Source of the DNA: Ochrobactrum chromiisoli
GTDB taxonomy: Bacteria > Pseudomonadota > Alphaproteobacteria > Rhizobiales > Rhizobiaceae
DNA length: 64,000 nucleotides
Direction of reading: 5' to 3'
Assembly (NCBI RefSeq): GCF_026241335.1
Contig: NZ_JAPHAV010000006.1
Span: forward strand, 62,001 to 126,000
Both the position numbers and the translations under genes were made by a program. The notes under the pieces were generated by a model. It did no database searches, was not told where the DNA came from, and saw only the letters and a program-made list of their open reading frames with translations. Shown here in pieces: positions 19,642 through 57,459 of this stretch (position 1 is its first letter; every line of letters begins with the position of its first letter).

Positions 19642-19717
<76 letters not shown>

Positions 19718-32175: not shown

Positions 32176-32327
32176 ATATTTATTCTTCCTGCGCGCAAGC
32201 TTTGACTCACCGCAAGCGCCAGAAATCAGGGTGCCCCCCTTGTCTGTGTCCCACGGCAACATTTCACAATGTCACCGCTACGGACGGCCGCGACTGAACA
32301 CCCCTCGTGTCAGCCATGGGTGACTGG

Positions 32328-32518
32328 ATATGGCAGGTCTCCTGACTTCCGGGTCTTCATCGAACCTCCACCTTCCCAAAGCCTGAAACTTCAGTGGCTG
32401 TATCATGATACAAATCATGAGAGGACGACTCTCCGGTCACAGTTGCGGGGGCAGTCACGGCATTGATCGCAAGATCTCACCGTGTTCCCTTTTCATCCGC
32501 CGTGAAGGCGGAACCATG
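32328..32518 (-). promoter_or_regulatory. Cobalamin riboswitch
   Basis: Read on the minus strand: GGGAACACGGTGAGA, then GCCGTGACTGCCCCCGCAAC, CTGTGACCGG, the B12 box GCCACTG, and GAAGTCAGGAGACCTGCC, in the order and spacing of the AdoCbl riboswitch. It lies about 150 bases before btuB. Binding of adenosylcobalamin normally shuts off the uptake genes behind it. Confidence 0.95.
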
Positions 32519-32627
32519 TCCTTTAAGAGCGATAGCAAGGCCGCAGTAAATTATCAACTGCAACAATGTGCCCCTTCTGAATCACATTCGGAGCAAAGCG
32601 ATTGAGATGGTTGAATTATATAGATTT

Positions 32628-53895: not shown

Positions 53896-54468
53896 TTACA
53901 GCCCCTGAGGCCCACGGTTCATAGCAGCCACACCCGTGCGACAGATTTCAACCAGACCAAGCGGCTTCATCAGCGAAATGAACTGGTCGATCTTGGCCGT
54001 CTTGCCGGTAATCTCCACAATGAAATGCTCGGTCGTTGCATCCACAATCTTGGCATTAAAGGCATCGGTCAGGCGCAGGGTTTCAGCACGCGCCTCGCCC
54101 TTTCCTGCAACCTTGATCAGCGCAAGCTCACGCTCAATCGGACGTTCATGGCCAAGTTCAACGGCGCGGTAGGTCATATCAACCACGCGGTGCACCGGCA
54201 CGATGCGCTCCAACTGATGGCGGATCTGATCGAGAACATTTGGCGTGCCACGTGTCACAATCGTGATGCGCGACAGATGCTGCTCATGCTCGGTTTCAGA
54301 AACCGTCAGGCTTTCAATGTTGTAGCCACGGCCTGAAAACAGGCCAATGACACGGGCGAGAACGCCCGGTTCGTTATCAACGAGAACCGAAAGCGTATGG
54401 GTTTCCGGTGTCTGTGTATCCGCTGCAATAAAATATGCCGAGCCGGATGCTAGATTTTGTGCGTTCAT
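53896..54468 (-). CDS. ilvH: Acetolactate synthase small (regulatory) subunit
   Basis: 190 aa. N-terminal ACT domain HTLSVLVDNEPGVLARVIGLFSGRGYNIESLTV (about residues 24-57), then a C-terminal IlvH domain. It binds valine and activates the large subunit. GGAGTAAAGAAC precedes the ATG. It follows ilvI by 15 bases in the same transcript and is the last gene before a strong terminator. Confidence 0.96.
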   Translation of the reverse strand: MNAQNLASGSAYFIAADTQTPETHTLSVLVDNEPGVLARVIGLFSGRGYNIESLTVSETEHEQHLSRITIVTRGTPNVLDQIRHQLERIVPVHRVVDMTYRAVELGHERPIERELALIKVAGKGEARAETLRLTDAFNAKIVDATTEHFIVEITGKTAKIDQFISLMKPLGLVEICRTGVAAMNRGPQGL

Positions 54469-54483
54469 GTTCTTTACTCCGGA

Positions 54484-56289
54484 TCAGACTAGGGAACGGC
54501 CCTTGGCGTCAATGGCATTGGCAACAGCTTCATCGGTCGCTTCATCAGGCAACAGCATTTCATTATGTGCCTTACCAGATGGGATCATCGGGAAGCAGTT
54601 GGCGAGATTGGCAACGCGGCAATCAAAGATAACCGGCTTTTTGACTTCAATCATTTCCATAATCGCATCATCAAGCTTCTCTGGTTTATCGCAGCGAATA
54701 CCATGCGCACCATAAGCTTCTGCCAGCTTCACGAAATCTGGCATTGCTTCCGTATAGGAATGTGACAAGCGATTGCCATGCAGCAACTGCTGCCACTGAC
54801 GAACCATACCCATATATTGATTGTTCAGGATGAAAATCTTGATCGGCGCTTCATACTGGATGGCAGCCGACATTTCCTGAATGCACATCTGGATCGACGC
54901 ATCACCAGCAATATCAATGACCAGCGCATCAGGATGCGCAATCTGAACACCCAGAGCCGCAGGCAAACCATAGCCCATGGTGCCGAGACCACCCGAAGTC
55001 ATCCAGCGATTTGGTGCGTCAAAATCCATGAACTGTGCGGCCCACATCTGATGCTGGCCAACTTCGGTCGTGATATAAGTGTCACGATCCTTGGTCAGTT
55101 CATTCAAGCGCTGCAACGCATATTGCGGCATGATCACGTCTTTGTTCGGCGTATAGGCCAATGACTTTCGAGCACGCCAGCGGTTGATCTGATCCCACCA
55201 GGCAGCAATTGCGTTCTTTTCGGGCTTCTTTTCGGAAGCGCGGAACTGGCGAACAATATCTTCGAGAACATGCGCCACATCACCGATAATCGGCACATCA
55301 ACGCGAACATTCTTGTTGATCGATGATGGATCAATATCGATGTGAATCTTGCGCGAATGCGGAGCAAAGGCATTGAGACGACCCGTGATACGGTCATCAA
55401 AACGCGCACCAACGCACAGCATGACATCGCAATCATGCATGGTCATATTGGCTTCGTATGTGCCGTGCATTCCGAGCATACCCAGCCAGTTCTTGCCCGA
55501 TGCAGGATAGGCACCCAAGCCCATCAGGGTCGAAGTGATCGGGAAATCGCTGATTTCAACCAGCTCACGCAAAAGCTTCGTTGCAGCAGGACCGGAATTG
55601 ATAACACCGCCGCCCGAATAAATGACGGGCTTTTTGGCGCTCAACAACATTTCAACAGCCTGCGCGATGGCCGACTTGTCACCCTCGATCGTTGGGCGAT
55701 AGCTGGTGCGCGGTGCAGTCTGCGGCGGTGTATAAATACCGGTCGCAAACTGAATATCCTTCGGGATATCAACCAGAACCGGCCCCGGACGCCCTGTTGA
55801 GGCAATATGGAAAGCCTCATGCAAGACGCGCGAAAGATCGTTGACGTTGCGAACCAGCCAGTTGTGCTTGGTGCAAGGGCGGGTAATACCAACCGTATCG
55901 GCCTCCTGAAAACCATCAGAGCCAATGAGTGTGGTCGGAACCTGACCGGAAATACAGACCAGCGGGATCGAATCCATAAGCGCGTCCTGCAAAGGCGTGA
56001 CAGCATTGGTAGCACCTGGACCAGACGTAACCAGCATAACGCCAACCTTGCCTGTCGAACGCGCATAGCCTTCGGCCGCATGGCCTGCGCCTTGCTCGTG
56101 ACGAACAAGAATATGCTGAACCTTGTCCTGCTGGAACAGTTCGTCATAGATCGGCAGCACGGCACCACCCGGATAACCGAAAAGATGTTCCACACCATGA
56201 TCAATCATAGCCTGAACCACCATTTCCGCGCCGGTCATTTCGCGTTGCCCTGCGGAGATCGTCGCCGCCTCGCTTTTTGCTGCCGTCAT
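54484..56289 (-). CDS. ilvI: Acetolactate synthase large (catalytic) subunit
   Basis: 601 aa from the ATG at 56289, chosen because GGGAAG lies nine bases upstream; a GTG three codons earlier is too close. It is a ThDP enzyme with GYPGGAVLPIYDEL, HEQGAGHAAEGYAR (catalytic Glu), and the ThDP site GDASIQMCIQEMSAAI to NNQYMGMVRQWQQLLH. It makes acetolactate and acetohydroxybutyrate. The message carries a leader peptide and attenuator upstream. Confidence 0.97.
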   Translation of the reverse strand: MTAAKSEAATISAGQREMTGAEMVVQAMIDHGVEHLFGYPGGAVLPIYDELFQQDKVQHILVRHEQGAGHAAEGYARSTGKVGVMLVTSGPGATNAVTPLQDALMDSIPLVCISGQVPTTLIGSDGFQEADTVGITRPCTKHNWLVRNVNDLSRVLHEAFHIASTGRPGPVLVDIPKDIQFATGIYTPPQTAPRTSYRPTIEGDKSAIAQAVEMLLSAKKPVIYSGGGVINSGPAATKLLRELVEISDFPITSTLMGLGAYPASGKNWLGMLGMHGTYEANMTMHDCDVMLCVGARFDDRITGRLNAFAPHSRKIHIDIDPSSINKNVRVDVPIIGDVAHVLEDIVRQFRASEKKPEKNAIAAWWDQINRWRARKSLAYTPNKDVIMPQYALQRLNELTKDRDTYITTEVGQHQMWAAQFMDFDAPNRWMTSGGLGTMGYGLPAALGVQIAHPDALVIDIAGDASIQMCIQEMSAAIQYEAPIKIFILNNQYMGMVRQWQQLLHGNRLSHSYTEAMPDFVKLAEAYGAHGIRCDKPEKLDDAIMEMIEVKKPVIFDCRVANLANCFPMIPSGKAHNEMLLPDEATDEAVANAIDAKGRSLV

Positions 56290-56341
56290 CGTCTTCACTT
56301 CCCGTCTGCTTTACTTAATCAATTCGTTGATGTTCAGATAA

Positions 56342-56364
56342 CAAAAAAGGCCCCCGAGGGAGCC
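56342..56364 (-). terminator. Attenuator terminator of ilvIH
   Basis: On the minus strand, AGGCTCC and GGGGCCT form a seven-pair stem (one G-U) around CTCG, followed by TTTTTT. It is placed between the leader peptide stop and the ilvI start, as in a classical amino acid attenuator. Confidence 0.8.
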
Positions 56365-56372
56365 TGTCTTTC

Positions 56373-56425
56373 GCGCATGGGAGCTTTCGCCGGATGGTTA
56401 CACCATCCTGCCCATGCGCGTTCGT
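56373..56425 (-). promoter_or_regulatory. Pause/protector hairpins of the ilv leader
   Basis: CGCGCATGGG pairs with CCCATGCGCG at long range, enclosing a GGATGG-TGTAA-CCATCC hairpin that contains the leader stop codon. A stalled ribosome on the Leu-Ile-Val codons would change this pairing. The competing antiterminator was not worked out in full. Confidence 0.6.
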
Positions 56426-56454
56426 ACCACAAGAATAAGAGCTGTTCTGTTCAT
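56398..56454 (-). CDS. ilvL: ilvIH leader peptide
   Basis: 18 codons, MNRTALILVVRTRMGRMV. The cluster ALILVV puts Leu, Ile, Leu, Val, Val in a row, the codons expected to sense branched-chain aminoacyl-tRNA supply. The stop lies inside a hairpin and the terminator follows. There is no Shine-Dalgarno sequence before the ATG, which stands seven bases after a -10 box, so translation is probably leaderless. Confidence 0.85.
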   Translation of the reverse strand: MNRTALILVVRTRMGRMV

Positions 56455-56490
56455 GCCGGGGAGACTAATCAGCGAAAATCGCGGCGTCAA
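56455..56490 (-). promoter_or_regulatory. Promoter of the ilv leader
   Basis: On the minus strand, TTGACG (56490-56485), a 17-base spacer and TAGTCT (56467-56462), then seven bases to the A of the leader ATG at 56454. The A is therefore at the expected +1 position. Confidence 0.7.
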
Positions 56491-56547: not shown

Positions 56548-57459
56548 TTATTGCCCTGACAAGGCTTCTTCAGCAGAGCCATACCTCTTCCAGCTCTCAT
56601 CAAGCTGGTTTCTAAACCATGTTGATTGCCGTTTCGCATATTGGCGCGTGGCGATAACGGAAAGCTCTATGGCTTCTTCGCGCGGTATTTCGCCAGAAAA
56701 AAATGCTGAAATCTCACGCACGCCGATCGCTTTTAAAGCCGGCAGTGCAGGATCAAGATTCAGAGCCATTAATGCACGGACTTCATCGAGCGCGCCCTGA
56801 TCCCACATGAGTTTGAAGCGCCGCTCAATCCGCTCGCCCAACCATTTGCGATCCGGCAACAACACGATTTTGCGCGCGCTCGCATTATCGATCAGTGCCG
56901 TTCCGGTATTCCTCTGCCAATGCAACAGAGACTTGCCTGTTCCCTCAAACACTTCCAGCGCACGCACAATACGCTGGCTGTCTGTGGGGCGCAACGTGGC
57001 TGCAATCTCCGGGTCTCGCTCTGCAAGCAATCTATGAAGGGCCTCTGCGCCCTCCTCGCTCATTTTGTTGCGCCAATGCTCACGCACATCAACAGCCACT
57101 TCCGGCATCTGCGAAAGCCCGCCCAACAGCGCGCGGAAATAAAGCCCTGTACCACCGACAAAAATCGGTGTGCGCCCTTTCAGATCATCCCGCGCCAGCA
57201 CAATTTCAACATCGGCAAACCATTTGCCCGTCGAATAGGAAACGGATGGAGCCACATGGCCATACAGAAAATGATCAGCTTCACGCAGTTCGTCAGCCTG
57301 CGGCCGTGCACTCAAAAGGTCGAGCACATCATAAACCTGCATGGAATCGGTGTTGACGATAAAGCCGCCTGTCTCCTTTGCCATATGAAGCGCAAGAGCC
57401 GACTTGCCGCTGGCCGTCGGTCCAGCTATCAGGATTGCACCCTTTACCGCTTCACTCAT
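56548..57459 (-). CDS. miaA: tRNA dimethylallyltransferase
   Basis: 303 aa. P-loop GPTASGKS at residues 13-20, then [19 protein letters not shown] and [16 protein letters not shown]. It adds dimethylallyl to A37 of tRNAs that read codons beginning with U. Divergent from serB with only 17 bases between the start codons. Confidence 0.96.

What the first reader, a model, noticed from the sequence alone, without database searches (positions are those of the whole stretch)
56342..56490. Leaderless attenuator for ilvIH
A minus-strand promoter (TTGACG, 17 bases, TAGTCT) puts the transcription start on the A of an ATG. That ATG opens MNRTALILVVRTRMGRMV, whose ALILVV run would sense Leu, Ile and Val supply. 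There is no Shine-Dalgarno sequence. The leader is followed by nested hairpins and a terminator before ilvI. Rhizobial trpL is known to be leaderless; this looks like the same design for branched-chain amino acids.
Basis: partly seen in the sequence, partly recalled or inferred. Interest (0 to 1): 0.7.

Follow-up and report, generated by a model that had tools for sequence, protein, structure and literature searches.

The report
Branched-chain amino acid attenuator before ilvIH
A short RNA leader in front of the genes for making leucine, isoleucine and valine probably senses their supply by the pace of a ribosome on a tiny peptide gene; the switch is of a known kind, but no sign was found of the alternative RNA fold that such switches usually need.

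Summary
At 56454-56343 (-) lie an 18-codon ORF (MNRTALILVVRTRMGRMV), nested hairpins and an intrinsic terminator, ahead of ilvI-ilvH. The stretch matches Rfam RF02502 (Atu_C8, "sRNA") at 113 bits (cut-off 50). ILVV is kept in 35 of 35 same-genus genomes. A promoter spaced to start on the A of ATG is kept in 56 of 57 fetched Rhizobiaceae loci, none of the 56 with a Shine-Dalgarno-like motif; other families often have one, so leaderless initiation looks like a lineage trait. Control codons are rare synonyms (GTA 52% in leaders, 2% in ilvI). ilvIH attenuation is already in print for Sinorhizobium and Caulobacter. New here: over 46 diverse leaders two hairpins and the terminator co-vary, but nothing upstream pairs with the terminator as an antiterminator (mean z +0.38), while the same test finds one in His (-1.75) and Trp (-2.10) leaders. 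The last control codon is outside the hairpin's 5' arm in all 46. Verdict: real, probably leaderless, a known kind with an unusual switch. Transcription start and translation were not measured.

The parts
56485..56490 (-). -35 hexamer TTGACG
   Evidence: sequence; TTGAC at the same place in all 35 same-genus loci
56462..56467 (-). -10 hexamer TAGTCT, 17-nt spacer, 7 nt before the A of ATG
   Evidence: sequence; geometry in 56 of 57 fetched Rhizobiaceae loci
56454..56454 (-). predicted transcription start = A of the leader ATG (inferred, not measured)
   Evidence: promoter geometry; the Rfam RF02502 model begins two bases further in, at 56452
56398..56454 (-). leader ORF MNRTALILVVRTRMGRMV plus TAA
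   Evidence: sequence; conserved ILV run
56425..56439 (-). control codons CTT ATT CTT GTG GTA (LILVV)
   Evidence: middle T of the last four codons invariant or nearly so over 46 leaders; rare-codon bias
56411..56420 (-). 5' arm (A) of the outer hairpin, CGCGCATGGG, inside the leader ORF
   Evidence: fold; co-variation
56392..56408 (-). inner hairpin around the stop codon
   Evidence: fold; swap test p 2.5e-11 over 46 leaders
56372..56381 (-). 3' arm (D) of the outer hairpin, CCCATGCGCG
   Evidence: fold; co-variation
56343..56365 (-). intrinsic terminator (7 pairs) and T run
   Evidence: swap test of its arms p 2.1e-9
56332..56452 (-). Rfam RF02502 Atu_C8 match
   Evidence: 113 bits, gathering 50
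54484..56298 (-). ilvI, acetolactate synthase large subunit (in-frame ATG at 56289 is an alternative start)
   Evidence: NF006581 1220.7 bits
53896..54468 (-). ilvH, acetolactate synthase small subunit
   Evidence: NF008864 227.9 bits

Best explanation
A ribosome-mediated transcription attenuator of ilvIH whose leader mRNA most likely starts on the A of its own AUG. A 70S ribosome initiates on the 5' AUG and translates the leader peptide (inferred; 13-20 codons among the 46 leaders). If charged Leu-, Ile- or Val-tRNA is short, it stops on the ILV codons, which are chosen from rare synonyms (codon bias shown, stalling inferred). If supply is good, it runs through the outer hairpin to the stop codon inside it, and RNA polymerase stops at the terminator, releasing the ~110-nt RNA that Rfam calls an sRNA (inferred). 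Which RNA conformer lets polymerase pass in starvation is not established: two hairpins and the terminator are supported by co-variation, a classical antiterminator helix is not detected. The reading I prefer is that the outer hairpin, which a ribosome held on the control codons leaves nearly whole, is itself what spares the terminator.
For: Rfam match 113 bits; element in 290 of 297 genomes of the family and 217 of 397 of the order. ILVV in 35 of 35 same-genus genomes. Second codon bases of the run invariant or nearly so in 46 leaders. Leaderless geometry in 56 of 57 fetched family loci, none of the 56 with an SD-like motif. Codon bias GTA 52% vs 2%, CTT 54% vs 9%, ATT 57% vs 19%, alike in leaderless-type and other leaders. 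Outer hairpin, inner hairpin and terminator pass swap tests. An ilvI homologue lies downstream in 111 of 122 elements. In print: ilvIH cis regulation in S. meliloti and ilvIH attenuation through a leader CDS in Caulobacter.
Against: No measured transcription start, ribosome footprint or response to amino acids was available for this genome. No antiterminator was found, so the switching step is missing. Folding gives a terminator probability of 0.80 or more at every ribosome position tried for the window (an equilibrium test, weak for a kinetic switch). The -10 hexamer is weak and the general promoter scan does not list it. The RF02502 model begins on the third base of the ATG, not the first. 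10 of the 122 elements stand before something other than ilvI, at least most of them an MFS transporter gene.
Confidence: 0.8

Rival explanations
1. A classical three-hairpin attenuator: an antiterminator exists but is short, kinetic or differently placed in each lineage, so that the tests here miss it.
For: With the 5' end removed to the last ILV codon, the terminator's 5' arm has mean pairing probabilities of 0.91, 1.00 and 0.82 before its 3' arm is made in L077, L078 and L104. Own pairing reaches a win fraction of 0.88 or more over swapped partners in 9 of 46 leaders, where 5-6 are expected by chance. In the window GCUCCC (nt 71-76) can pair with the terminator's 3' arm at -12.2 kcal/mol.
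Against: Over 46 leaders pairing with the terminator's 5' arm is no better than shuffled (z +0.38, p 0.99; limited to the stretch up to 12 nt past the stop: z +0.03, p 0.72, 5 of 46 at 0.05 or below) and with the 3' arm z is +0.51; for 17 Rhizobiaceae leaders +1.03. The same test gives -1.75 for 17 His leaders and -2.10 for 16 Trp leaders. The window's GCUCCC pairing is within chance (empirical p 0.13) and weaker in the Rhizobium leaders tried (-7.4).
Confidence: 0.35
2. The transcript starts a few to tens of nt upstream, so the leader is short-leadered or SD-less rather than leaderless.
For: No start was measured. Gaps of 6-8 nt leave room for a start at -1 to -3. In many other families of the order the same leader has an SD-like motif (41 of 65 non-Rhizobiaceae elements with a loosely defined motif).
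Against: The gap from -10 to ATG is 7 or 8 nt in 55 of the 56 passing Rhizobiaceae loci and 6 nt in the other, and none has an SD-like motif. The sRNA model RF02502 starts inside the ATG. Of 1853 ATGs in 29 loci 33 pass the same geometry test, 27 of them the leaders themselves by my count.
Confidence: 0.15
3. It is chiefly a trans-acting sRNA gene, as the Rfam label says, and the ORF and ilvIH position are incidental.
For: Rfam type 'Gene; sRNA'. The trp attenuator RNA rnTrpL and its peptide do act in trans in S. meliloti (PMC7298713, passages).
Against: Constraint falls on second codon bases of an ILV run and on rare synonyms. An ilvI homologue lies downstream in 111 of 122 elements. A role in trans could exist beside attenuation but does not explain these.
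Confidence: 0.06

Closest known systems
Rfam RF02502 Atu_C8 (Rhizobiales sRNA)
   Same: The window element is a full-length member at 113 bits; same outer hairpin and terminator.
   Different: Rfam calls it an sRNA and starts it on the third base of the ATG; it is better described as the terminated ilvIH leader with a peptide ORF.
ilvIH cis-regulatory element of Sinorhizobium meliloti (PMC2573895 Table 3, citing Vitreschak 2004) and ilvIH leader CDS of Caulobacter (PMC4117421, Fig. 6C legend)
   Same: Same operon, same kind of leader logic.
   Different: The passages read say nothing of leaderless initiation of this leader or of a missing antiterminator; Vitreschak 2004 itself was not held.
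Leaderless trpL / rnTrpL of S. meliloti (PMC7298713, PMC10117765; passages)
   Same: sORF starts at the RNA 5' end; an attenuator-derived RNA accumulates.
   Different: For trp the paper describes mutually exclusive antiterminator and terminator; here no antiterminator is detected and the codons are Leu/Ile/Val. The two were not compared by a tool.
Trp_leader RF00513 and His_leader RF00514
   Same: Leader peptide with a run of control codons, hairpins, intrinsic terminator.
   Different: In these the terminator's 5' arm has a strong upstream partner (z -2.10, -1.75); here it has none. The last control codon pairs into the hairpin's 5' arm with probability above 0.5 in 8 of 20 Trp leaders and 0 of 46 here; the outer helix starts 3 nt or more after the start of that codon in 5 of 20 Trp leaders and 39 of 46 here.

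Membership tests
Rfam RF02502 Atu_C8 | covariance-model score at or above 50 bits | tested here: met
   113 bits, full length 1-122
Classical ribosome-mediated amino acid attenuator (trp/his type) | short ORF with a run of codons for the pathway's product | tested here: met
   LILVV; ILV runs of 3-6 in 46 diverse leaders
Classical ribosome-mediated amino acid attenuator (trp/his type) | intrinsic terminator before the first structural gene | tested here: met
Classical ribosome-mediated amino acid attenuator (trp/his type) | antiterminator: an upstream segment that pairs with the terminator's 5' arm | tested here: not met
   z +0.38 over 46 leaders; His and Trp controls positive; swap test p 0.52, which was itself underpowered on 11 His leaders (p 0.10)
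Classical ribosome-mediated amino acid attenuator (trp/his type) | leader is translated and read-through rises on starvation | not testable with these tools
   needs Ribo-seq and reporters
Leaderless mRNA (rhizobial trpL type) | transcription starts on the A of the AUG | tested here: inconclusive
   promoter geometry only, 56 of 57 fetched family loci; no 5' end measured
Leaderless mRNA (rhizobial trpL type) | no Shine-Dalgarno before the AUG | tested here: met
   window sequence; 0 of 56 passing family loci
Trans-acting sRNA | regulates mRNAs encoded elsewhere | not tested
   no target search was run

The most novel reading that the evidence does not exclude
The ilvIH leaders of this order are attenuators without an antiterminator. 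The control codons end a few nt before the outer hairpin, so that a ribosome waiting on any of them leaves the hairpin folded at its mRNA entry site, while a ribosome that passes opens it and parks at the stop codon inside. The folded hairpin then spares the terminator without pairing with it, for example by acting on RNA polymerase as put-type RNAs do (put comparison recalled), or its opening is what permits termination.
Probability: 0.3. Interest if true: 0.8.

Novelty: new variant of a known kind. Interest (0 to 1): 0.48.

Why it matters
If the leader starts on its AUG, branched-chain attenuation joins trp as leaderless in Rhizobiaceae, and the order offers the same attenuator in leaderless and Shine-Dalgarno forms, even within one genome, a natural experiment on how initiation affects attenuation. 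If there is truly no antiterminator, textbook attenuation (two mutually exclusive folds) is not the only way a stalled ribosome can control an intrinsic terminator. It also suggests that an Rfam 'sRNA' family should be described as an attenuator leader, and it links a transporter of unknown substrate to branched-chain amino acids.

Tried and rejected
Rejected: chance ORF (conserved in 35 of 35 same-genus genomes). Rejected as sole explanation: trans-acting sRNA. Equilibrium folding with ribosome positions showed no switch for the window but is not a fair test of a kinetic mechanism; partial-transcript folding gave no consistent switch. The partner-swap test found no antiterminator, but on 11 His leaders it was itself underpowered (p 0.10), so I replaced it by a shuffle test with two positive controls. 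My first geometry count left out helices that start upstream of the last control codon, and its Trp counterpart did not; one search repeats both alike and is the one cited.

Rows dropped: of 122 elements with a leader ORF, 46 representatives below 0.80 similarity were used. His control: 4 of 30 loci had no His run, 9 of the other 26 were removed as redundant, leaving 17. Trp control: 22 of 30 fetched loci were given, 2 had no Trp run, 1 was too short, 3 redundant, leaving 16. The loci were mostly the best-scoring matches, not a random sample.

A same-clade trpL control failed: a promoter-plus-Trp-run pattern gave no match in the window's genome and matches in 9 of 121 family genomes, judged only from the printed strings, none looking like trpL. 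RF00513 gave only a weak hit in the window's genome (31.4 bits against 41), not followed. Paper search 'Atu_C8' returned one unrelated paper. Wilms 2012, Vitreschak 2004 and Melior 2019 were not held.

Full report
WHAT IS THERE. On the minus strand between miaA (56548-57459) and ilvI-ilvH (54484-56298, 53896-54468) the window reads TTGACG, 17 nt, TAGTCT, 7 nt, ATG (A = 56454). The ORF is MNRTALILVVRTRMGRMV-stop (56454-56398). Nested hairpins (outer nt 35-44 with 74-83, inner nt 47-63) and an intrinsic terminator (56365-56348 plus T run) follow.

IDENTITY. The stretch 56332-56452 is Rfam RF02502 Atu_C8, 'Rhizobiales sRNA', 113 bits against a cut-off of 50. The model starts two bases inside the ATG. 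That the family goes back to Agrobacterium RNA-seq (Wilms 2012) is recalled; the paper was not held. The family is found in 47 of 60 relatives, 217 of 397 genomes of the order at E 0.001 (72 over the cut-off), 290 of 297 genomes of the family and none of the 14 control genomes in each of these calls. The 7 family misses are genomes of 1.2-2.0 Mb. 'Rhizobiaceae' below means the window's family f1.

THE PEPTIDE. All 35 same-genus genomes keep ILVV (L001-L030, L118 and L119; L240-L242). In an alignment of 46 diverse leaders the middle T of the run's codons is invariant (nt 23, 26) or nearly so (nt 20, 29), as expected for Ile/Leu/Val/Met/Phe codons, while other codon bases vary. Runs of I, L or V are 3-6 long. 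The run uses rare synonyms: GTA 52% of 103 Val codons against 2% of 1995 in the downstream ilvI stretches, CTT 54% of 72 against 9% of 1892, ATT 57% of 69 against 19% of 1693. The bias is alike in leaderless-type and other leaders, so it is not a by-product of leaderless initiation. Leaders share ancestry, so these are not independent counts.

INITIATION. A simple rule (at least 5 of 6 matches to TTGACG, 16-19 nt, TA...., 4-10 nt, ATG) is met by 56 of 57 fetched Rhizobiaceae loci (32 of them same-genus; seven are second copies in their genome), with 8 nt (35), 7 nt (20) or 6 nt (1) before the ATG and no Shine-Dalgarno-like motif in any of the 56. The remaining three same-genus loci (L240-L242) show the same spacing by eye. 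The exception, L115, has AAGG. The rule also passes 33 of 1853 ATGs in 29 loci, 27 of them the leaders themselves by my count. Outside the family 15 of 65 elements pass and 41 of 65 have a loosely defined SD-like motif, two of them both. In family f11 all 10 have the motif and none passes. In family f6 the 7 ilvI copies have GGAG (6 start with GTG) and none passes, while the 5 copies before a transporter all pass; five genomes carry one of each (G162, G294, G367, G392, G404; loci L048-L051, L054 and L066-L070). Leaderless initiation is therefore probably a lineage trait of an older attenuator. No transcription start was measured here.

STRUCTURE. RNAalifold on the 46 leaders gives the outer hairpin and the terminator, 14 pairs, 10 of which show compensatory changes. 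In a scan of all column pairs the outer hairpin stands far above everything (helix z up to 17); the terminator follows (z 4.8), only just above unrelated, mostly non-canonical column sets (z 4.3). Swap tests give p 5e-9 for the outer hairpin, 2e-9 for the terminator and 2.5e-11 for the inner hairpin, but p 0.52 and 0.61 for pairing of upstream segments with the terminator's 5' and 3' arms. The stop codon is enclosed by predicted pairs in 46 of 46, and the innermost enclosing loop is 10 nt or less in 42. Compared with shuffled upstream sequence the terminator's 5' arm has mean z +0.38 (2 of 46 at or below 0.05) and the 3' arm +0.51; up to 12 nt past the stop only, the 5' arm has +0.03 (5 of 46). 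For 17 Rhizobiaceae leaders the 5' arm has +1.03. The outer hairpin as positive control has -3.56 (43 of 46). The same test on 17 His leaders gives -1.75 (p 8e-6) and on 16 Trp leaders -2.10 (p 1.5e-5), also when the arm is limited to the 11 nt nearest the loop. So the classical antiterminator is not detected. Against this: in L077, L078 and L104 the arm is mostly paired when the 5' part is removed (0.91, 1.00, 0.82), 9 of 46 reach a win fraction of 0.88 or more over swapped partners where 5-6 are expected, and duplex energies cannot see pseudoknots or short kinetic traps. The swap test on 11 His leaders was itself not significant (p 0.10).

GEOMETRY. With one rule for both sets, the distance from the start of the last control codon to the first base of the helix around the stop codon is 5-8 nt in 31 of 46 ILV leaders, 3 nt or more in 39, and 2 nt or less in 7; the window has 7. 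The last control codon is paired into the hairpin's 5' arm with probability above 0.5 in 0 of 46 (mean 0.04). For Trp leaders 5 of 20 have 3 nt or more (22-37 nt), 14 have 2 nt or less, 1 has no helix, and the codon is in the arm in 8 of 20 (mean 0.31). Counting only helices that start at or after the codon gave 5-8 nt in 42 of 46. With the last control codon in the A site the hairpin base lies near +11 from the P site, where the ribosome's helicase acts (recalled). Thus a ribosome held on any control codon leaves the outer hairpin nearly whole, and one that passes opens it. This polarity, hairpin folded in starvation, is inference.

MECHANISM. Supported by sequence: conserved peptide, rare control codons, hairpins, terminator, gene context (an ilvI homologue downstream of 111 of 122 elements), promoter spacing. 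Inferred: leaderless start, translation, stalling, read-through in starvation. Unknown: how the terminator is spared. I prefer a gate by the outer hairpin; the classical scheme with a missed antiterminator is the main rival.

LITERATURE. PMC2573895 (passages) lists 'ilvIH cis regulatory' in S. meliloti, citing Vitreschak 2004. PMC4117421 (passages and one section) has, in a figure legend, attenuation through an ilvL leader CDS at Caulobacter ilvIH, and reports 375 leaderless mRNAs. PMC3616915 (passages) gives 171 leaderless mRNAs in S. meliloti; no word beginning with ilv occurs in its main text. PMC10117765 and PMC7298713 (passages) describe leaderless trpL. In the listings of nine searches I saw no paper whose title or abstract start reports a leaderless ilvIH leader or an amino acid attenuator without antiterminator; most subscription papers are not in that library.

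VERDICT. Real, conserved, an attenuator of a known kind; the leaderless start is likely; the missing antiterminator is the point worth testing.

Noticed in passing
L037, L048, L049, L051, L054, L060, L062, L064, L065; R. etli IE4771 pRetIE4771d (L251), Rhizobium sp. Kim5 (L253): Second copies of the same attenuator, with Val-rich leaders such as MKIAMVLVVVIGRMGRMV, stand before an MFS transporter. Family search of four of them: Bcr/CflA type (TIGR00710) at 211 bits, over its 200.9 cut-off, for L051 and L054, and 173-179 bits, under it, for L064 and L037; the others were judged from the translation, and the two named records from their annotation next to a blastn match. This suggests a transporter tied to branched-chain amino acids, or one induced by slow ribosomes. 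12 of 297 family genomes show two RF02502 matches by my count.
   Followed up: partly
L061, L123, L150, L158, L182: In some Rhizobium a copy of the leader precedes another acetolactate synthase gene, about 60-66% identical to the window's IlvI.
   Followed up: no
L071, L072, L073: Family f11 genomes carry two ilvI genes about 2.7 kb apart, each with its own attenuator leader.
   Followed up: no
window 32315-32533 (-): Cobalamin riboswitch, RF00174, 121.3 bits.
   Followed up: no
window 19642-19714 (+): tRNA gene, RF00005, 73.5 bits.
   Followed up: no
L250 (S. meliloti Ak57, CP090106.1): Three annotated genes, one with a DUF87 domain, sit between miaA and the ilvIH leader, which directly follows miaA in the window; the record is named pSymB and is 3.7 Mb long.
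   Followed up: no
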